A stretch of DNA of 22,323 bases, from positions 1 to 22,323 of IMG/VR virus record IMGVR_UViG_3300035157_000042; one strand, given 5' to 3'. Positions 1-10,361 of this stretch are shown in pieces. Position 1 is the first letter of the stretch. Every line of letters begins with the position of its first letter. Source of the stretch: a virus. Below the pieces are notes generated by a model. That model searched no databases and had not been told where the DNA came from. It saw only the letters and a list, made by a program, of their open reading frames with translations. The translations under genes were made by a program, and so were the position numbers.

Positions 1-182
1 CGCTTACATGGGTACTTGCTTATGAAACTGGTAATGGTAACAAGACTGAAGCAGTGAAGGATACCTTTAGAACGTTACTCTCTACAGAGTATCAAGAGAA
101 GGCATCTGTGCTAGGTTATGTACCACTCAGAGGTGACATCCTTGAGAAGTCTCGTGCTGCTGTAGAAAGAATTAGTAAGTAA
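1..182 (+). CDS. pstS: PstS-like phosphate ABC transporter substrate-binding protein, C-terminal fragment
   Basis: This is the last 59 codons of a gene that enters from the left edge; the reading frame begins at base 3. The fragment ends with a pattern known from the C-terminus of PstS proteins: LTWVLAYETGN, a helix with TEAVKDTFRTLLSTEYQ, then the hallmark LGYVPLRGDILEK and a last helix ending in RISK. PstS binds phosphate in the periplasm and hands it to the Pst ABC transporter. Cyanophages carry it as a host-derived auxiliary gene expressed under phosphate stress. The stop codon overlaps the next start by one base (TAATG), so the two genes are probably co-transcribed. The ligand-binding residues and any pho box lie outside the window. 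The family call is fairly sure for so short a piece; phage versus host origin cannot be judged from it. Confidence 0.82.
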   Translation, partial: LTWVLAYETGNGNKTEAVKDTFRTLLSTEYQEKASVLGYVPLRGDILEKSRAAVERISK

Positions 183-796
183 TGACTGCACCTACATTAA
201 CTGATCTGATATATCTAAAGAAAAATTATTTGACTAAGGATCAGTGTGAAATTATTATTAATGAATTTGAGGCAAGCTCACAAAAACCTGATCAGGAACA
301 TTGTGGGCATGCCTTTAATAATTTGGATGTATACTCCACCTTTAAAGTCAAGGAGTCTAAGGTAGGTACTGATAGTTTTAATATAATACATCAAACTATT
401 GAGAATGTAATTAATGAGTATCATGATTACCTTGATACTTTTAATGCCTTTCATGTTGCTAGGAGAGGTAGTATGTTACACCCTCATAAGTATCGTCTTA
501 TGAAATATGAGAAGGGTGCTTGGATACATCCTCATATAGATCATGATGTTACCATATATGGTAGTTGTACTATCAATTTAAATGATGAGTATGAAGGTGG
601 TGACTTTGCGTTCTGGGGTGGCAAGCATAAATTGAAATTAGGGTTAGGTGATGTGATGATCTGGCCAGCAGATTTCTTTTGGGTACATGAGGTAGAAGAA
701 ATAACAGATGGTACTAGGTACTCTGCAAATACTTTTCTATGTTCTACACCAAAAACATTACCTGAAACTGTAAGATATAATGTGAGAGGTGTATGA
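182..796 (+). CDS. 2OG-Fe(II) oxygenase (prolyl-4-hydroxylase-like), halogenase-linked
   Basis: This 204-aa protein has the core of a 2-oxoglutarate/Fe(II) dioxygenase. The iron-binding HxD is H118-D120 (in HPHIDHD), the distal histidine is H169 (in FFWVHEVEE), and R179 in GTRYSANTFL would bind the 2-oxoglutarate carboxylate. The segment between them (INLNDEYEGGDFAF...GDVMIWPADF) is the usual jelly-roll spacing of P4H-type enzymes. Such enzymes couple decarboxylation of 2OG to hydroxylation of a protein, lipid or small molecule; the substrate is not evident here. The start overlaps the pstS stop by one base, and the stop region overlaps the halogenase start by four bases (ATGA), so it probably acts with the halogenase or is at least co-expressed with it. 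It is the first of four such oxygenases in the window. The four are divergent, not a recent tandem duplication. Confidence 0.85.
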   Translation: MTAPTLTDLIYLKKNYLTKDQCEIIINEFEASSQKPDQEHCGHAFNNLDVYSTFKVKESKVGTDSFNIIHQTIENVINEYHDYLDTFNAFHVARRGSMLHPHKYRLMKYEKGAWIHPHIDHDVTIYGSCTINLNDEYEGGDFAFWGGKHKLKLGLGDVMIWPADFFWVHEVEEITDGTRYSANTFLCSTPKTLPETVRYNVRGV

Positions 797-2301
797 AAAC
801 TATTGCTATTGTTGGTGGTGGTACTGCTGGATGGCTTACTGCTCATCAATTTCTTAGAAAAATAAATCCAGAAATAAAAATAGTTGTAGTGTCTTCCTCA
901 CAAGTTCCTGTTATAGGAGTGGGTGAAGGAACTACAGGTCTTTTTACTGAGTTGATTCATGAACTGTTTGATGAGAAAGAATTTTTAAAAGAAACAGAAT
1001 CTACCTATAAGATAGGTATAAGGCATAGTGATTGGGATGAAGTAGGAAAATCTTTTTGGTCACCATTAGGTGATGAATACTCTGGTGAGTATTCATTTCC
1101 TTCACCAGACTATGATGATGTTAGGGTGTGGCATATTGCTAATGGATTAGAGTATGATAAGTCATTCCAATCTCGTTTGATGGCAGAGAACAGACTTCAC
1201 ATTTCAAATGGTGAAAGTATATACACTAAGTTACATGAGGAACATGATGGATATAGTATACCTGTTGCATATCATTTAGATAGTCATAAGGTTGGGGAAT
1301 ATTTAAAAAGGAAAGCATTAGAGAAATCTAATTGTTCTCATGTTGAAGGTAAAGTAGTAGCTCTCGCTCAAGATAGAGATGGTTCTATACATCATCTTGT
1401 CTTGGATGATGATAGAGAAGTTGAAGCTGATTTTTATATAGATTGTTCTGGGTTCTCTAGAATATTAATTAATAATATTACAGATAATAATTTTATATCA
1501 TATGATAATGATCTTTTAGTGGATAGTGCTTTAGTTTTTACTAGAGATTCTAATGATATTAAAAATTATACTCATGCTCATGCATTAAAGAATGGGTGGA
1601 TGTGGGAGATACCTACACAAACTAGAATGGGATGTGGATATACTTTTAGTAGTAAGTTTACTGATAAAGATAAAGCATATGATGAGTTGGGTGATGTAGA
1701 GATAAAGAAACATATTACATTTAACTCTGGTAGAGTAGAAAAGCATTGGTTTAGGAATGTATTATCAACAGGTCTTGCTAGTGGATTTGTTGAACCATTA
1801 GAAGCTATTTCTATTCATGCTACTATTTTACAGAACCAAGAGTTCTTGGATAATTATTTTAAACCTAGTTTAGATCTAACTTGTGATGCTCTTCAGGAAC
1901 AATACAATGAAGATGTGAATTATATGTGGGATAACTTTAGAGACTTTCTTGTGTTTCATTATATCTCACATAGAACTGATACTGATTTTTGGATTGAATC
2001 TTCTAGTTCAGAAAGATGGAGTCCTAGATTAACTAGACTAATGAAGATATGGAAATGTAGAATGCCAAGAGTTACTGATTTTAAAATTGGTAAGAGTAAT
2101 GATTTTCATGCTATGGGTAATCCATTATGGTATAACATTGCTATTGGTATGAACATGTTAGATCCATTGATTGCTTCACAGGAACTACATGACTATGGCA
2201 TATATGATGTAATGGAAACTCGTTGTAAGAATACATTTGATGCCATAGAGAAAGCACTACCATCTATGGTTAAAACAAACGATTATTATATGCATATATA
2301 A
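793..2301 (+). CDS. Flavin-dependent halogenase (tryptophan halogenase family, VirX1-like)
   Basis: This 502-aa protein is a full-length FAD-dependent halogenase. The N-terminal dinucleotide-binding motif is GGGTAGW (residues 8-14). The catalytic lysine that relays HOCl-type oxidant in PrnA/RebH fits K73 (TYKIGIRHSDW). The family signature WxWxIP is intact at 269-274 (WMWEIP), and the PLE motif with the active-site glutamate lies at 335-337. The serine next to that glutamate in PrnA is alanine here (A338). The family uses FADH2 from a separate reductase, O2 and halide to halogenate an aromatic substrate. A cyanophage member, VirX1 from phage Syn10, has been described as an iodinase with broad substrate range, and this gene is probably of that type. 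The substrate and flavin reductase are not encoded nearby. Its start overlaps the upstream oxygenase gene by four bases. A strong terminator follows directly, so this is the last gene of its unit. Confidence 0.93.
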   Translation: MKTIAIVGGGTAGWLTAHQFLRKINPEIKIVVVSSSQVPVIGVGEGTTGLFTELIHELFDEKEFLKETESTYKIGIRHSDWDEVGKSFWSPLGDEYSGEYSFPSPDYDDVRVWHIANGLEYDKSFQSRLMAENRLHISNGESIYTKLHEEHDGYSIPVAYHLDSHKVGEYLKRKALEKSNCSHVEGKVVALAQDRDGSIHHLVLDDDREVEADFYIDCSGFSRILINNITDNNFISYDNDLLVDSALVFTRDSNDIKNYTHAHALKNGWMWEIPTQTRMGCGYTFSSKFTDKDKAYDELGDVEIKKHITFNSGRVEKHWFRNVLSTGLASGFVEPLEAISIHATILQNQEFLDNYFKPSLDLTCDALQEQYNEDVNYMWDNFRDFLVFHYISHRTDTDFWIESSSSERWSPRLTRLMKIWKCRMPRVTDFKIGKSNDFHAMGNPLWYNIAIGMNMLDPLIASQELHDYGIYDVMETRCKNTFDAIEKALPSMVKTNDYYMHI

Positions 2302-2309
2302 TGTACAAC

Positions 2310-2336
2310 AAAAGAGACCCAAGAGGTCTCTTTTTA
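2310..2336 (+). terminator. Rho-independent terminator after the halogenase
   Basis: A 10-bp perfect stem (2310-2319 paired with 2325-2334, core AAAGAGACC / GGTCTCTTT) has a five-base loop (CAAGA), and the 3' arm ends in a T-run that continues to 2335. It starts 9 bases after the halogenase stop and ends before the next ribosome binding site. It therefore separates the metabolic cassette from the small genes upstream of gp43. Confidence 0.9.
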
Positions 2337-2349
2337 TATGGAGAGAGAC

Positions 2350-2580
2350 ATGAATGTCTATTTGAATTTAAAACCAAATAACCATGACGGTGATTCGGAT
2401 CTCTTGACAGTTGATGTACCTTCAAGTTATACTGAGGAACTACTAAAACATGTCAGACCTATTGCCGAAGAAAAAAATGTACCTGAGTCACGTATACTTA
2501 AGGACATCATAAAACAATCTATCAACGAAATACAAAGGAGAAGTTATGAGCGTAAGAGTCGTAAGAACCAGAAGCGGTGA
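2350..2580 (+). CDS. Small protein with ribbon-helix-helix-like pattern
   Basis: A 76-aa protein. An upstream in-frame ATG exists at 2338, but it touches the terminator; the ATG at 2350 is preceded by GGAGAGAGAC and is the better start. Residues about 17-60 read as a short strand (LLTVDVPSS) followed by two helices (YTEELLKHVRPIAEEKN, then ESRILKDIIKQSINEIQ). This is the strand-helix-helix layout of small DNA-binding proteins of the Arc/CopG type. The tail is very basic (RRSYERKSRKNQKR), fitting nucleic-acid binding. The last 35 bases overlap the next gene in another frame. I do not recognise a named family, and the RHH call is by pattern only. As the first gene after a terminator and upstream of gp43, it might be a regulator. 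Confidence 0.6.
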   Translation: MNVYLNLKPNNHDGDSDLLTVDVPSSYTEELLKHVRPIAEEKNVPESRILKDIIKQSINEIQRRSYERKSRKNQKR

Positions 2581-2953: not shown

Positions 2954-3128
2954 ACTAGATGAGGAACCCAGTATCCTTATAGAGGAATGTTACGAAATAA
3001 TTTCTGATGATGAGATAGTTCCCTTCCCATCATATACTGCTCAACGTGACGTTTTCTTGACTTCTGATACGATTTTGACTATACTGGATCCGAGTCCAAA
3101 TATAGTTAAATTGTACGAGAAGAAATGA
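2883..3128 (+). CDS. Sm/LSm-like small protein, second copy
   Basis: An 81-aa protein if started at the ATG at 2883 (a second ATG follows at 2886). Both are preceded by GGAAGAGGAG, a good ribosome site. A GTG at 2871 is possible but less likely. From residue about 6 the protein runs directly into an Sm1-like strand pattern (LKVILLKQRSNYLLGKVTEL, then PSILIEECYEI). It ends with an Sm2-like part, DVFLTSDTILTILDPS (about residues 58-73). It resembles the first copy in fold but not closely in sequence. About 70 bases overlap the preceding gene out of frame, and its end overlaps the gp43 start by four bases (ATGA), so its translation is probably coupled to that of the polymerase. The role is unknown; RNA binding is inferred from the fold only. 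Confidence 0.7.
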   Translation: MMQQQLKVILLKQRSNYLLGKVTELDEEPSILIEECYEIISDDEIVPFPSYTAQRDVFLTSDTILTILDPSPNIVKLYEKK

Positions 3129-5614
3129 GTCAGTTTTACACCAACGTACAGTTAGCTGGTGACACTATCCTCTATAGGGGATATCAAGATGGAACTCCAG
3201 TTCAGTTTCGTGGTAAGTTTTCTCCTACATTATATGTCCCTTCTCAAAAGAAGGAGAAATATAAGACACTTGATGGTAGATCAGTTGCTCCTATAGAGTT
3301 TACTACTGCCAGAGATGCTAGAGAATTTATTAAAACGTATGATGGTGTAGAAGGATTTGAAGTACATGGGTATGAGCGTTTTGTATATCAGTATATAAGA
3401 CGTGAGTTTCCAGGTGAGGTTGATTATAATATCAATCAGATGAAGATATTCGCATTGGACATTGAGGTTCAGTGTGAGAACGGTTTCCCTGATGTGGAAG
3501 CAGCAGCAGAAGAGATGCTTTCTATTACCATTAAAGATATGGTTACGAAAGAATTTTTTGTATGGGCTGTAAGAGAGTTTGAAGTACCTGATGGTGTCAA
3601 GGCATTTATCTATGACACCGAAAGGGATATGCTTAGTAACTTTATTGAATGGTGGGTGCAGAATACACCAGATATTCTTACAGGTTGGAACGTTAACCTA
3701 TATGACGTACCTTATATTGCTCGTCGTGTAAATAGGACGTTGGGTGAGAAATGGATGAAGTCCTTATCACCTTGGAACCGTGCTAATGAAAGGGAGGTAT
3801 ATGTCCAAGGACGTAAAAATTATGCTTATGATGTTAGTGGGATTAACATTCTCGACTATCTCGATCTTTACCGTAAGTTTACTTATAGTAACCAGGAATC
3901 ATACAGACTCGATCATATCGCTTTTGTTGAACTAGGTCAGCGTAAGGTTGATCATAGTGAGTATGATAATTTTAAAGATTTTTATACTAGAGATTGGCAG
4001 AAGTTTATTGAGTACAACATCCAAGACGTTGAGTTGATCGACAGATTGGAAGATAAGATGAAGTTATTGGAACTTGCCATAACAATGGCTTATGATGCCA
4101 AGACAAACTTTGAAGATGTGTATTCTCAAGTTCGTATGTGGGATACCATCATTTATAATTACTTAAGCGACAAGAACATTGTTGTACCACCCCGAAAGGG
4201 ATCTAAAAAAGATGAAAAATACGCAGGTGCTTATGTCAAGGAACCGAAACCAGGACGCTATGATTGGGTTGTGTCTTTTGACCTCAATAGCCTGTATCCT
4301 CATCTTATTATGCAGTACAACATCTCCCCAGAGACCCTCTGGGAGACTCGACATTCCAGCTCGAGCGTTGAACGGATTCTAAATCAAGAGATTGATTTTA
4401 GTGATTGTAAATTTGCCGTGTGTGCTAACGGTGCTCAGTATCGTAAGGACGTACATGGTTTCCTACCAAAAATAATGCAGAAGATCTATGACGAACGTAC
4501 GATATATAAAAAGGCCATGCTCCAAGCAAAGAGGGATTATGAAAAAAGTCCCTCTACTAAGTTACAAAAAGATATTAGTAAATTCAATAATATCCAAATG
4601 GCTAGAAAAATACAGCTCAATTCAGCTTATGGAGCCATTGGAAACCAGTACTTTAGATATTACAACCTATCGAATGCTGAGGCGATTACTCTCAGTGGGC
4701 AGGTTAGCATCCGTTGGATTGAAAACAAAATGAATCAGTACCTTAATATGGTACTTAAAACTGAGGAGGAAGATTATGTTATTGCCAGTGATACTGATAG
4801 TATCTACCTCAACCTTGGTCCTTTGGTTGAAAGTGTATACAAGGGCAGAGAGAAAACTGATGAGGGCATTGCTAGGTTCCTTGACAAGGTGTGTCAAACT
4901 AAATTTGAGCCTTTTATTGAGAGTTCTTACCAAGAATTGGCCGAGTACGTTGGAGCGTACGAACAGAAAATGATTATGAAGAGGGAGAACATTGCCAACA
5001 AAGGTATATGGACTGCCAAGAAGAGATATATTCTTAACGTATTCAATAGTGAAGGGGTTCAGTATGCTCAACCTAAGTTAAAGGTTATGGGTATAGAGTG
5101 TGTTAAATCTTCTACACCAGGTGCATGTAGAGATAAGATTAAGGAGTGTTTGAAGGTTATTATGAATGAAGGTGAAGAAGCAGCACAAGATTTTATTAAG
5201 AACTTTAGGGATGAGTTTGATACATTTCCTGTTGAGGATATATCATTCCCCAGAGGATGCAATGGGATAAATAAGTGGGCAAACCCATCCAGTATATACA
5301 GCAAAGGCACACCTATACATGTGCGTGGTGCTTTGTTGTTTAATCATTACAATAAGAAGAACAAGTTACAGCATAAGTATCCTTTAATACAGGATGGCGA
5401 AAAGATTAAATTTGTTTATCTTAAGACACCAAATAAAATAGGAGAGAATGTAATTTCTTATTTACAAACTCTTCCTACAGAGTTTGGGCTTGACAAACAG
5501 GTCGACTATGACTTACAATTCAGTAAGAGTTTTCTTGAACCTATTAAAGTTATTATGGATACAATCGGATGGAAGCCAGAAAAAGTTGCTAGTTTGGAGT
5601 TCCTATTCGGATGA
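3125..5614 (+). CDS. 43: DNA polymerase gp43 (family B, with 3'-5' exonuclease)
   Basis: This 829-aa replicative polymerase is intact. Exonuclease motifs are D112/E114 (FALDIEV), D194 (GWNVNLYDVPY) and Y297/D301 (YNIQD). Polymerase motif A is D386 in FDLNSLYPH, motif B is K495-N499-Y502-G503 (KIQLNSAYG), and motif C is the DTD at 556-558 (SDTDSIY). The KKRY element follows in the palm-thumb region. It is somewhat shorter than T4 gp43 (898 aa) and is one continuous reading frame, not split as in some T4 relatives. The C-terminus ends in a short hydrophobic tail (SLEFLFG), like the clamp-binding peptide of T4 gp43. Start and stop both overlap neighbours by ATGA, so it is translationally coupled to the Sm-like gene before it and to a micro-ORF after it. 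Confidence 0.98.
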   Translation: MSQFYTNVQLAGDTILYRGYQDGTPVQFRGKFSPTLYVPSQKKEKYKTLDGRSVAPIEFTTARDAREFIKTYDGVEGFEVHGYERFVYQYIRREFPGEVDYNINQMKIFALDIEVQCENGFPDVEAAAEEMLSITIKDMVTKEFFVWAVREFEVPDGVKAFIYDTERDMLSNFIEWWVQNTPDILTGWNVNLYDVPYIARRVNRTLGEKWMKSLSPWNRANEREVYVQGRKNYAYDVSGINILDYLDLYRKFTYSNQESYRLDHIAFVELGQRKVDHSEYDNFKDFYTRDWQKFIEYNIQDVELIDRLEDKMKLLELAITMAYDAKTNFEDVYSQVRMWDTIIYNYLSDKNIVVPPRKGSKKDEKYAGAYVKEPKPGRYDWVVSFDLNSLYPHLIMQYNISPETLWETRHSSSSVERILNQEIDFSDCKFAVCANGAQYRKDVHGFLPKIMQKIYDERTIYKKAMLQAKRDYEKSPSTKLQKDISKFNNIQMARKIQLNSAYGAIGNQYFRYYNLSNAEAITLSGQVSIRWIENKMNQYLNMVLKTEEEDYVIASDTDSIYLNLGPLVESVYKGREKTDEGIARFLDKVCQTKFEPFIESSYQELAEYVGAYEQKMIMKRENIANKGIWTAKKRYILNVFNSEGVQYAQPKLKVMGIECVKSSTPGACRDKIKECLKVIMNEGEEAAQDFIKNFRDEFDTFPVEDISFPRGCNGINKWANPSSIYSKGTPIHVRGALLFNHYNKKNKLQHKYPLIQDGEKIKFVYLKTPNKIGENVISYLQTLPTEFGLDKQVDYDLQFSKSFLEPIKVIMDTIGWKPEKVASLEFLFG

Positions 5615-5763: not shown

Positions 5764-6770
5764 GTTTTTTACAGGATGTAGTAAAGGAGATAGGTAATGA
5801 ATATGCTTCTCTCGTTAGTGATGGTGTTGCTGCTGGTGACACAAATAATTTTATCGACACAGGTAGTCACATCTTTAACGCACTTGTCTCAGGAAGCATC
5901 TACGGAGGTATTCCAGGGAATAAGATCACAGCTATTGCAGGTGAGTCAAGCACAGGCAAAACTTTTTTCTGCCTTGGTGTGGTACAGCATTTTCTCGAAT
6001 CTAATCCTGATTCTGGGGTTATTTACTTTGAGTCTGAGAGTGCATTAAGTAAACAGCAGATTGAAGAGAGGGGTATTGATTCTTCTCGTATGATGATTGT
6101 ACCTGTTACTACGGTACAAGAATTTAGAACACAATCTATCAGAATATTAGACAAATATTTAGAACAACCTCCTTCATCGAGACAACCCTTAATGTTTGTT
6201 TTAGATTCTCTTGGTATGTTATCAACCAGTAAAGAGGTTGAGGACAGTGAAGCAGGTAAAGATACACGTGACATGACTAGAGCACAAGTTGTCAAGTCTA
6301 TCTTTAGAGTTCTAACTCTTAAATTAGGTAAAGCAAACGTCCCAATGTTGGTTACCAATCATACATATGATGTAGTAGGATCTTATATCCCCACAAAGGA
6401 GATGGGAGGTGGCAGTGGACTCAAATACGCAGCAAGCACAATCATATATCTATCTAAAAAGAAAGAGAAGGATGGTAAAGAGGTTGTGGGAAATATTATT
6501 AAATGCAAAACAGCTAAAGCTAGATTAACTAAGGAGAATAGTGCCGTTGATGTACGACTTTATTATGACACAGGACTTGACAAGTATTACGGACTATTGG
6601 AATTGGGTGAGAAGCATGGAGTATTTGAACGGAAGGGAAACCGCATTAGTATTGGTGGCTCTAATGTTTATCCTTCTGCAATTCTTGCCGACCCAGAAAA
6701 ATACTTCACCCCCGAACTAATGCAAGCATTAGACGAATGTGCATCCAAGGAGTTTCGCTATGGTAACTAA
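5760..6770 (+). CDS. uvsX: UvsX RecA-like recombinase
   Basis: A 336-aa RecA/UvsX-type recombinase. Walker A is GESSTGKT at 61-68, and Walker B is the hydrophobic strand LMFVLDS at 144-150. ESES at 91-94 occupies the usual catalytic-glutamate region at the end of the next strand. The region around [32 protein letters not shown] matches the RecA core strands that follow. It would coat ssDNA and catalyse strand exchange for recombination-dependent replication and repair, working with gp43 and gp41 encoded around it. The length is somewhat below T4 UvsX (about 390 aa), as is common in marine relatives. The end overlaps the ribosome site and start of the next oxygenase gene by 11 bases. Confidence 0.95.
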
Positions 6771-7329
6771 ATTAGAAGACTACATCAAGTGCTATGATAA
6801 TATGGTCAATGATACTCTATGTAATGATATCATTGAAGCATATAAACAATCAGGTACTAGCTATGTTAATAGAGAACAGAGACCTACGTTCCATGAACTG
6901 AATATATCTAAGAAGTATAAGGCAGAGGATCCTTTATGGATTAAACCTCAAAAGATAATAACAGAAACATTTATTGATGTTGTTAATCTTTACATGGAAG
7001 ATCTAGAAATTGCTAGAGATTTTCCTGTCAAGTATACTTTTGAGGAGTACCGTATGAAACGGTATGAGTGTAATGATCATGATCAATTTAAAGATCATGT
7101 TGATGTACAGGATTACAGTTCTGCACGTCGTTTTGTTGTTATATTTCTCTATTTGAATGATGTTTTAGAGGGTGGTGAGACAAATTTTCCTAGATTGGAC
7201 TTGGCAATTACACCAAAACAAGGTAGAATACTCGTGTTCCCTGCCAACTGGCAGTACAGACATGCAGGTCTCCCTGTAAGGTCAAACGACAAATACATTA
7301 TTGGATCTTATCTCCACTACCTAGAATGA
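6760..7329 (+). CDS. 2OG-Fe(II) oxygenase between uvsX and gp41
   Basis: A 189-aa protein from ATG 6760, chosen because AAGGAG lies 8 bases upstream; a GTG at 6739 would add seven residues inside uvsX. The dioxygenase core is clear: HxD at H113-D115 (KDHVDV), the GGET turn (LEGGETNFP), the strand [10 protein letters not shown], and the distal histidine H168 (RHAG). K178, rather than arginine, lies at the 2-oxoglutarate-binding position ([11 protein letters not shown]). Lysine at this position is typical of prolyl-4-hydroxylase-type enzymes. The substrate is not evident. It sits inside the replication operon (stop overlaps the gp41 start by ATGA), so it would be made together with the replisome. 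2OG oxygenases in this position are common in T4-like cyanophages, but their role is not known. Confidence 0.9.
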
Positions 7330-9087: not shown

Positions 9088-9176
9088 TGCATTTAGTTCT
9101 ACCTATCATTTGCATTGGACTTATTGTTTTAGTCATAGTGTATTCAGTTATTAATAGATATGATCCTCACACATGA
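9087..9176 (+). CDS. 29-aa single-membrane-segment micro-ORF
   Basis: ATG 9087 follows AGGAGATAGGTA, a strong ribosome site, and overlaps the mazG stop by one base. The 29-residue product is mostly one hydrophobic segment (LVLPIICIGLIVLVIVYSVI, residues 3-22) followed by a short polar tail (NRYDPHT). It ends at TGA 9174-9176, overlapping the next start by ATGA. It looks like a tiny membrane protein. The family is unknown. Couplings on both sides and the good ribosome site support translation. It is below the length that automated annotation usually keeps. Confidence 0.7.
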   Translation: MHLVLPIICIGLIVLVIVYSVINRYDPHT

Positions 9177-9862
9177 ATAACGCAGACAGATACCTACCAT
9201 TATTCGCATCTAATGTATTCCAACTTCATATAGATTATGATCTAGATGTATTGAAAACTAATAAGAGTTTTATCTATGCAGCTAATCAGAATAAGAAGTA
9301 TGAGTCTGAGAATTATAGAGCATTGGAAATGTTTCCAAATGTTAGAGATCATCTTATAAACAGATTTAAAGAACTTGCTCATAATTTTTTAAAGTTAGAG
9401 TCTGATTTTGTTATAACTACATCTTGGTTTACTATTACTGAAGAAGGTGATGGAGGTGATTCACATTATCATTTCCATAAGAATAGTTTTTATAGTGGTG
9501 TATTATATTACGATGAGTATAAAGAAGATAGTGCTCCTATAGAATTCATGACTCCTTTGGAGTTTCATTCTGATTTTTATATGGAACCAAGAGAATATGA
9601 TTTAGCTACTTCAACTTCTTGGAAAATATATCCTAAGAAAAATATGCTTGTACTATTTCCAAGTTACTTAAAGCATCAGGTAGGAAAACATATAGGAACT
9701 GACCCAAGATATTCTTTAGCATTTAATATTGTTCCTACAGGATCTTATGGTACATCAGATTCTTCTGTTCATACTGAATGGTTAACTGGAACATCAACAA
9801 CACATGAATTAGAGATGGGTTATAGAGTTCTTGGGGGTAAAAAATATATTGCTGATAATTGA
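9173..9862 (+). CDS. Putative 2OG-Fe(II) oxygenase, YhhC/TIGR02466-like
   Basis: A 229-aa protein with the pattern of the phage-associated putative 2OG-Fe(II) oxygenase family. The signature HYHFHKNSFYSGVLYY (about 98-113) compares with the family's H.H-P-x-S-x-x-SGVYY. The beta strand NMLVLFPSYLKHQV brings the distal histidine H168, and R179-Y-S-x-A-F-N (RYSLAFNIVP) is the 2OG-binding end. After the core there is a Ser/Thr/Gly-rich tail. The substrate is unknown. The start overlaps the 29-aa membrane gene by ATGA. The next oxygenase gene overlaps its last 32 bases, so these two enzymes are made from one message. The DNA here is AT-rich with strongly T/A-ending codons, unlike the replication genes. 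Confidence 0.75.
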   Translation: MNNADRYLPLFASNVFQLHIDYDLDVLKTNKSFIYAANQNKKYESENYRALEMFPNVRDHLINRFKELAHNFLKLESDFVITTSWFTITEEGDGGDSHYHFHKNSFYSGVLYYDEYKEDSAPIEFMTPLEFHSDFYMEPREYDLATSTSWKIYPKKNMLVLFPSYLKHQVGKHIGTDPRYSLAFNIVPTGSYGTSDSSVHTEWLTGTSTTHELEMGYRVLGGKKYIADN

Positions 9863-10361
9863 TGATTTTTTAAATCATAAAGACTTCGAGAAAGTCTTTA
9901 TGAAATATTCTGTTGGTGGTGATCAAAGTATATGGGGGATACAAAGAGGTGGAAATAATCATAGAGGATCAGAGTTTTTATTTTCTCATATAAAAGATGA
10001 TCCTTTCTTTACTGATTATTTGTTTTCCAAAGTTGTTGATAAATTAGATAAAGGTTCATATGAATTAGAAAGAGTATATTTTAATGGTCAATGGAGTGGA
10101 AGAGAATCAGATTTACATAAAGATGGGTGTGATATAACAGCACTACTTTATATGCATAACAGATATGAGTATGGATGGGGTGGATTTACTGAGATTATAA
10201 CTAAACCTAATCCAATTTTAATACATCCTATACCTAATAGATTATTAATATTTCCTGGTATGAATTCACATAAGGCATACTCTTTTGCATATCAAACATG
10301 TCCTTTAAGAGTTACTTTGGCTTTTAAAATACATAGTATTGATACTGTTAATAAATTATGA
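9831..10361 (+). CDS. Putative 2OG-Fe(II) oxygenase with non-ATG start
   Basis: A protein of up to 176 aa with the dioxygenase pattern: HxD at H96-D98 (ESDLHKDGCD), a central sheet (DITALLYMHN, then GWGGFTEII), the strand NRLLIFPGMNSHKA with distal H147, and R160 in LRVTLAFKIHS for 2-oxoglutarate. The start is uncertain. No ATG occurs in frame until codon 24, which would cut off the usual N-terminal strand (ILLIIDDFL). TTG at 9831 or 9849 is therefore likely; GGGGGT at 9833-9838 could serve the latter. The gene begins inside the end of the preceding oxygenase in another frame. The stop overlaps the next gene by ATGA. Very AT-rich, like its neighbour. The substrate is unknown. Confidence 0.75.
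   Translation: MGVKNILLIIDDFLNHKDFEKVFMKYSVGGDQSIWGIQRGGNNHRGSEFLFSHIKDDPFFTDYLFSKVVDKLDKGSYELERVYFNGQWSGRESDLHKDGCDITALLYMHNRYEYGWGGFTEIITKPNPILIHPIPNRLLIFPGMNSHKAYSFAYQTCPLRVTLAFKIHSIDTVNKL

What the first reader, a model, noticed from the sequence alone, without database searches (positions are those of the whole stretch)
182..2336. Viral halogenase coupled to a 2OG-Fe(II) oxygenase downstream of pstS
The halogenase has an intact WxWxIP, the catalytic lysine (K73) and glutamate (E337), and overlaps a dioxygenase gene by four bases. The pair ends in its own strong terminator, so pstS, oxygenase and halogenase look like one unit. Related cyanophage halogenase VirX1 prefers iodide. The combination suggests a two-step tailoring of one substrate (hydroxylation plus halogenation) during infection; that is inference. 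A338 in place of the PrnA serine may reflect altered halide or substrate handling. No flavin reductase is seen nearby, so host FADH2 supply is implied.
Basis: partly seen in the sequence, partly recalled or inferred. Interest (0 to 1): 0.78.

Follow-up and report, generated by a model that had tools for sequence, protein, structure and literature searches.

The report
Cyanophage halogenase in swappable pstS slot
An ocean cyanobacterial virus carries intact genes for a halogen-adding enzyme and a hydroxylating enzyme directly behind its phosphate-scavenging gene, but relatives show that this is an exchangeable cargo slot, so the two enzymes are probably not a fixed two-step pathway.

Summary
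An intact 2OG-Fe(II) oxygenase (182-796) and an intact flavin-dependent halogenase (793-2301) overlap by 4 nt, sit tight behind pstS, and are followed by a strong hairpin. Both folds are confirmed by structure prediction (halogenase like PyrH/Thal/Tar14; oxygenase like prolyl-4-hydroxylases), and both genes are under purifying selection. The interpretation changes in four ways. (1) The terminator is not the pair's own: it lies directly behind pstS in nine cargo-free IMG/VR loci and in the isolate P-SSM7, so the pair was inserted between pstS and the pstS terminator. (2) This pstS|cargo|gp43 slot holds alternative contents: nothing; oxygenase+halogenase; the same oxygenase+a JmjC/cupin protein; the same oxygenase+other 2OG enzymes; or a 66%-identical halogenase behind a different oxygenase. 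(3) The oxygenase occurs without the halogenase in at least 17 loci of this slot, the nearest outgroup halogenases have no adjacent 2OG gene, and 2OG-halogenase adjacency across phages does not exceed the local 2OG-rich background. The two-step pathway is therefore not supported. (4) Ala338 is the phage-family norm; the clade-specific change is Ile339 (normally Thr) at the halide site. VirX1 lies in a separate clade, so its iodide preference cannot be carried over.

The parts
3..182 (+). 3' end of pstS (phosphate-binding protein), last 59 codons; stop shares one base with the oxygenase start (TAATG)
   Evidence: phrog_5385 5e-18; junction conserved in L002, L006, L007, L008, L011, L012
182..796 (+). 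oxyA: 2OG-Fe(II) oxygenase, prolyl-4-hydroxylase-like, H118/D120/H169/R179
   Evidence: PF13640, phrog_61, profile match to P4H 3itq/5hv0 at 2e-13, Foldseek to PKHD/PHD2/P4H, dN/dS about 0.15
793..2301 (+). hal: flavin-dependent halogenase with GGGTAGW, K73, WMWEIP, E337 and the unusual halide loop A338-I339-S340-I341
   Evidence: PF04820 322 bits; model pLDDT 89.8, TM 0.83-0.89 to PyrH/Thal/Tar14; dN/dS about 0.11
2309..2336 (+). intrinsic terminator AAAAGAGACCCAAGAGGTCTCTTTTT; the ancestral terminator of pstS and right boundary of the cargo slot
   Evidence: fold; present in 73/80 loci including 9/9 empty slots and in isolate P-SSM7 directly behind pstS
2338..2580 (+). phrog_730 small gene, conserved right flank of the slot
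   Evidence: phrog_730 7e-39
3125..5614 (+). gp43 DNA polymerase, right flank; most similar isolates P-SSM7, S-H25, P-SSM4 (82%)

Best explanation
The pair is the current content of an exchangeable cargo slot in T4-like cyanophages, lying between pstS and the pstS terminator just upstream of gp43. SHOWN: oxyA and hal are intact, conserved and coupled to pstS by overlapping stop and start codons; empty and differently loaded versions of the same slot exist; the cassette is found between strongly diverged flanks. INFERRED: both genes are expressed by read-through from the pstS promoter, so under host phosphate-starvation control where that promoter answers to PhoB, and stop at the shared hairpin. 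INFERRED from family knowledge: the halogenase takes host-supplied FADH2, forms C4a-hydroperoxyflavin with O2, attacks a halide held at the E337-S340 loop, and sends HOX past the WMWEIP barrier to K73/E337 to halogenate an electron-rich aromatic group; the oxygenase performs an ordinary Fe(II)/2OG hydroxylation, most like peptidyl-prolyl hydroxylases. The two enzymes share an operon rather than an obligate pathway. Substrates and halide are unknown.
For: Empty slots: pstS followed directly by the hairpin then phrog_730 in L091, L102, L104, L114, L117, L118, L125, L133, L142 and in P-SSM7. Alternative cargo: oxyA+JmjC_2 in 11 loci, oxyA+other 2OG (L036-L040), oxyB+hal of 66% identity in 4 loci. 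Exchange: in L006 oxyA 99% and hal 95% nt identical but phrog_431 68% and gp43 69-80%; in L080 the right flank is 89-98% identical but the cargo differs. Coupling TAATG/ATGA and identical hairpin in relatives. Enzyme integrity: hal; oxygenase. psbA in the 179-kb relative shows a cyanophage. An 11-nt-period TTAA repeat, Pho-box-like, precedes pstS in 9/14 distinct variants against 0.07 expected by shuffling, variants being related. PMC10976474 reports that host PhoBR controls pstS of cyanophage P-SSM2 and that PhoB binds the S-PM2d DNA polymerase promoter.
Against: No transcript or biochemical data. The window holds only the end of pstS, so its own promoter was not read; PMC10976474 warns that Pho-box prediction in phages is unreliable, and 5/14 variants lack the exact repeat. 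In every slot locus where the upstream side is visible, hal follows some 2OG oxygenase, which leaves room for a loose functional link. Ile339 could impair halide binding.
Confidence: 0.6

Rival explanations
1. One reading: oxygenase and halogenase act in sequence on one substrate, so they are kept and moved together.
For: 4-nt overlap and invariant order in 11/11 relatives whose upstream side is visible; the sister halogenase also follows a 2OG oxygenase with overlapping frames; HTVC008M and S-SSM7 have a 2OG gene overlapping the halogenase start, S-H38 one overlapping its end.
Against: oxyA without hal in at least 17 slot loci, with other partners; the partner oxygenase of the sister halogenase is not orthologous (22%); nearest outgroups L157-L163 have no adjacent 2OG gene; adjacency 19/64 against 31/150 local background; the 179-kb relative has 15 2OG genes among 186 called genes.
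Confidence: 0.15
2. The halogenase fold is kept but halogenation is lost or changed, for example an oxidase, an H2O2-producing flavoprotein or a monooxygenase, because the halide site is altered.
For: Thr339, whose backbone NH binds halide in PrnA/RebH, is Ile in 12/12 clade members while most phage representatives have Thr, Ser or Asn; related phage lineages (S-PM2, S-RIM44 group) even replace the catalytic Glu by Gln.
Against: K73, E337 and WMWEIP are all kept and dN/dS is about 0.11; halide contacts are by backbone amides (PMC5945002); active BrvH has Ser and Xcc4156 has Asn at the Gly position (PMC5945002, PMC7336383).
Confidence: 0.15
3. Both enzymes modify proteins or peptides (host or virion) rather than small metabolites.
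For: The oxygenase resembles prolyl-4-hydroxylases that act on proteins, including P. putida P4H/EF-Tu and the viral collagen hydroxylase of PBCV-1; elsewhere phage halogenases and 2OG genes lie among tail-fibre and collagen-like genes.
Against: No substrate protein or peptide gene in the slot; the slot lies among replication genes; P4H-like folds also act on small molecules.
Confidence: 0.2

Closest known systems
VirX1 of cyanophage Syn10 (PDB 6qgm), iodide-preferring viral flavin-dependent halogenase
   Same: Fold, GxGxxG, catalytic Lys, catalytic Glu, WxWxIP; T4-like cyanophage origin
   Different: About 26% identity, separate phage clade; VirX1 halide loop ESTGL against EAISI here; tail-fibre neighbourhood rather than pstS-gp43
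PrnA / RebH / PyrH / Thal / Tar14 tryptophan halogenases
   Same: Whole-fold match TM 0.8-0.9, catalytic K/E and WxWxIP
   Different: Loop S-T-G replaced by A-I-S; sequence alignment to PrnA ends near residue 429, so the substrate-lid region is not alignable and tryptophan as substrate cannot be inferred
S-PM2 / S-RIM44 / Syn1 'tryptophan halogenase' (phrog_2928)
   Same: Closest annotated isolate homologues (33-36%), same broad clade
   Different: Catalytic Glu is Gln; next to small genes and tRNAs, no 2OG gene overlapping
BrvH and Xcc4156 brominating halogenases
   Same: Also lack the Gly of the halide loop (BrvH has Ser as here)
   Different: Keep Thr where this clade has Ile
Prolyl-4-hydroxylase-like 2OG oxygenases (B. 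anthracis P4H, PHD2, PKHD, vCPH)
   Same: Fold and HxD...H...R motif
   Different: Low identity (12-17%); substrate unknown; second-shell and substrate-loop residues not compared
P-SSM7 pstS-gp43 region
   Same: pstS, identical-style terminator, phrog_730 start, then gp43 (82%)
   Different: Slot is empty: no oxygenase, no halogenase

Membership tests
Flavin-dependent halogenase (Pfam PF04820 superfamily) | Profile membership and whole-fold match | tested here: met
   322 bits against cut-off 21; AF2 pLDDT 89.8, Foldseek TM 0.83-0.89 to PyrH/Thal/Tar14
Flavin-dependent halogenase (Pfam PF04820 superfamily) | GxGxxG, WxWxIP, catalytic Lys and catalytic Glu | tested here: met
   GGGTAG, WMWEIP, K73, E337 in 12/12 full-length clade members including the window
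Flavin-dependent halogenase (Pfam PF04820 superfamily) | Halogenation activity with FADH2, O2 and halide | not testable with these tools
   Needs biochemistry
Canonical ESTG-loop halogenases (PrnA/RebH/VirX1 subgroup) | Ser-Thr-Gly after the catalytic Glu (halide loop) | tested here: not met
   A338-I339-S340. Not filed in this subgroup. This does not bar the superfamily: active BrvH and Xcc4156 lack the Gly (PMC5945002, PMC7336383)
Tryptophan halogenase (substrate Trp) | Trp-binding lid residues | tested here: inconclusive
   Sequence alignment with PrnA stops near residue 429; the lid region is not alignable
2OG-Fe(II) oxygenase, P4H-like | HxD...H iron triad and 2OG-binding Arg/Lys on a DSBH fold | tested here: met
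   H118, D120, H169, R179 in 12/12; DSBH-type matches
Conserved two-enzyme oxygenase-halogenase pathway | The two genes co-occur as a pair across relatives | tested here: not met
   oxyA with other partners or alone in at least 17 slot loci; sister hal with a different oxygenase; outgroup hals without adjacent 2OG
Exchangeable accessory-gene slot between pstS and its terminator | Same flanks with different or no cargo | tested here: met
PhoB-controlled cyanophage operon | Functional Pho box and phosphate response | tested here: inconclusive
   TTAA-N7-TTAA repeat upstream of pstS in 9/14 variants; binding not testable here; the window's own pstS promoter is outside the record

The most novel reading that the evidence does not exclude
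The slot between pstS and its terminator is a phosphate-starvation-controlled expression site into which marine T4-like phages rotate tailoring enzymes, so that infected phosphate-starved cyanobacteria make a halogenated product, or halogenate a protein, that replete cells do not, using a halogenase whose halide site (Ile339) differs from those of characterised enzymes.
Probability: 0.25. Interest if true: 0.72.

Novelty: new variant of a known kind. Interest (0 to 1): 0.42.

Why it matters
Cyanophage halogenases have been listed since 2010 and one (VirX1) is characterised in vitro, but none has a known role. Coupling one to pstS gives a testable condition, phosphate-starved infection, and natural matched controls: the same slot empty (including the isolate P-SSM7), with a JmjC protein instead, or with a Thr-bearing sister halogenase. 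It also cautions against reading gene adjacency as a pathway in genomes with about fifteen 2OG oxygenases.

Tried and rejected
Pathway by conserved adjacency: rejected after building 2OG profiles and comparing 64 phage halogenase clusters with local and genome-wide backgrounds. The excess over the genome-wide rate (10.5%) disappears against the local rate (21%), and a stricter HxD set gives 11/64 against 21/165. A338 as a functional marker: rejected, it is the family norm. VirX1 as close kin: rejected. Own terminator: rejected. Phage-borne flavin reductase: PF01613 and PF03358 not found in the 179-kb relative. Published Pho-box consensus scan upstream of pstS: no better than shuffles in most loci; the 11-nt TTAA repeat was seen only afterwards by eye, so its statistic is post hoc. 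Sequence search of the oxygenase alone against PDB: nothing useful; the alignment profile worked. The simple terminator scan missed the hairpin, probably because it counts the T run into the stem. Papers: no description found of oxygenase-halogenase pairing or of this slot; one paper (PMC10976474) reports no conserved synteny of pstS among isolates.

Full report
WHAT IS THERE. The window is a 22.3-kb virus record from the replication region of a T4-like cyanophage: pstS tail, gp43, uvsX, gp41, MazG, nrdA, nrdB. A relative of 179 kb (contig of L012) carries psbA, and the most similar isolates are Prochlorococcus and Synechococcus T4-like phages (P-SSM7, S-H25, P-SSM4; gp43 82%). The oxygenase ORF (182-796) and halogenase ORF (793-2301) are as described. 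pstS and the oxygenase share one base (TAATG) and the oxygenase and halogenase four (ATGA); both joints recur in the relatives checked. The hairpin at 2309-2336 is strong.

THE ENZYMES. The halogenase scores 322 bits to PF04820. Its predicted model (pLDDT 89.8) matches PyrH, Thal and Tar14 over the whole length. GxGxxG, K73, WMWEIP and E337 are kept in all twelve full-length clade members, and dN/dS is about 0.11. The oxygenase keeps H118, D120, H169 and R179 in 12/12, with dN/dS about 0.15. An alignment profile reaches prolyl-4-hydroxylases at 2e-13 and the model matches PKHD, PHD2, P. putida P4H and the PBCV-1 collagen hydroxylase. So both are functional-looking enzymes; activity is inferred.

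THE HALIDE LOOP. Characterised halogenases read EPLESTG. In an alignment of 69 phage and 40 bacterial representatives, Ala at position 338 is the phage norm (53/69) and so is Ser at 340 (52/69); Ile at 339 is confined to this clade among intact sequences, where others have Thr, Ser or Asn. The sister halogenase (66%) has Thr. The halide is held by backbone amides at these positions (PMC5945002), and active BrvH and Xcc4156 differ at the Gly position (PMC5945002, PMC7336383), so Ile339 may tune rather than abolish halide use. VirX1 is about 26% identical and falls in a different phage clade, so its iodide preference is not evidence here. The C-terminal lid is not alignable with PrnA by sequence, so tryptophan as substrate is not implied.

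THE SLOT. Scanning IMG/VR for the right-flank gene phrog_730 gave 80 loci. Where pstS is visible, nine have pstS followed within about 60 nt by phrog_730, with the same hairpin between them. P-SSM7 has the same empty arrangement, with the hairpin directly after the pstS stop. The hairpin is present in 73 of 80 loci regardless of cargo. Hence it is the pstS terminator and the pair was inserted in front of it. Other contents are: oxyA plus a JmjC_2/cupin protein (11 loci; PF08007), oxyA plus one or two further 2OG oxygenases (L036-L040), oxyA with a C-terminal extension alone (L035), and a different 2OG oxygenase (oxyB, 22% identical to oxyA) with a 66%-identical halogenase (L080-L083). In L006 the pair is 95-99% identical to the window while phrog_431 is 68% and gp43 69-80%; in L080 the right flank is 89-98% identical while the cargo differs. 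Both patterns mean exchange of cargo between phages.

IS IT A PATHWAY? The halogenase of this clade always has oxyA upstream where visible (11/11). But oxyA occurs in the slot without it in at least 17 loci; the sister halogenase uses a non-orthologous oxygenase; and the nearest outgroups (L157 at 52%, L158-L163 at 40-44%) sit beside a gp55-like sigma factor, a hypothetical gene or tail genes with no adjacent 2OG gene. Across 64 phage halogenase clusters, 19 have an adjacent 2OG gene, against 31 of 150 control genes in the same loci (Fisher p 0.11) and 18 of 171 genes in the 179-kb relative, which alone has 15 2OG genes. Adjacency is therefore mostly what such genomes give. A weak functional preference cannot be excluded, because both halogenase lineages in this slot follow a 2OG gene with overlapping frames.

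LIKELY WORKING. Inferred: read-through from the pstS promoter expresses pstS, oxygenase and halogenase together and stops at the hairpin. An 11-nt-period TTAA repeat precedes pstS in 9 of 14 distinct upstream sequences, similar to a Pho box; this was seen post hoc, the standard consensus scan was negative, and PMC10976474 warns that such predictions are unreliable, while reporting that host PhoBR controls P-SSM2 pstS. The halogenase would use host FADH2, as neither of two flavin reductase families is in the relative.

VERDICT. Real, intact and conserved; a new clade of phage halogenases in an exchangeable slot for which no earlier description was found; pathway claim not supported; physiological role open.

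Noticed in passing
window 6739-7329, 9173-9862, 9831-10361: Three more 2OG-Fe(II) oxygenase-like ORFs in the same 22 kb. The one at 9831 belongs to phrog_274, labelled 'DNA endonuclease V', but carries an HxD...H...R pattern and a weak PF13640 match; the label looks wrong.
   Followed up: partly
L058, L060, L057, L059, L174, L169, L203, L195, L208: Several phage halogenase lineages, including S-PM2 and S-RIM44, have Gln in place of the catalytic Glu (EPLQATSI) while keeping Lys and mostly WxWxIP; possibly altered chemistry.
   Followed up: partly
L005:650-1342; L003, L004, L010; also L121, L128, L130, L131, L134, L138, L139, L149: A 230-aa putative membrane protein lies between pstS and oxyA in some relatives, and next to phrog_730 in eight other loci, seven without visible pstS; another piece of slot cargo.
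   Followed up: partly
L009, L010, L011, L012 halogenase: A 9-residue insertion after residue 253 (RE[LM]WYEDPK) splits the halogenase clade in two.
   Followed up: no
L159, L160, L207, L067, L070, L071: Tandem pairs of two different halogenase genes with overlapping or abutting ends in several phages.
   Followed up: no
L015:4270-9800, L024, L027: Tight operon in a group of phage contigs: 2OG, small ORF, about 230-aa ORF, halogenase, 270-aa ORF, small ORF, 2OG, further 2OG-like ORF, with most genes overlapping or nearly so; a better candidate for a multi-step tailoring pathway than this window.
   Followed up: no
L234: Contig binned as a Maricaulis MAG carries a relative of this halogenase (37%) beside what look like phage structural genes; probably a virus in the bin.
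   Followed up: no
L327:3541 onward (P-SSM7): The start of a phrog_730-like reading frame is present behind the pstS terminator but no CDS is annotated there.
   Followed up: no
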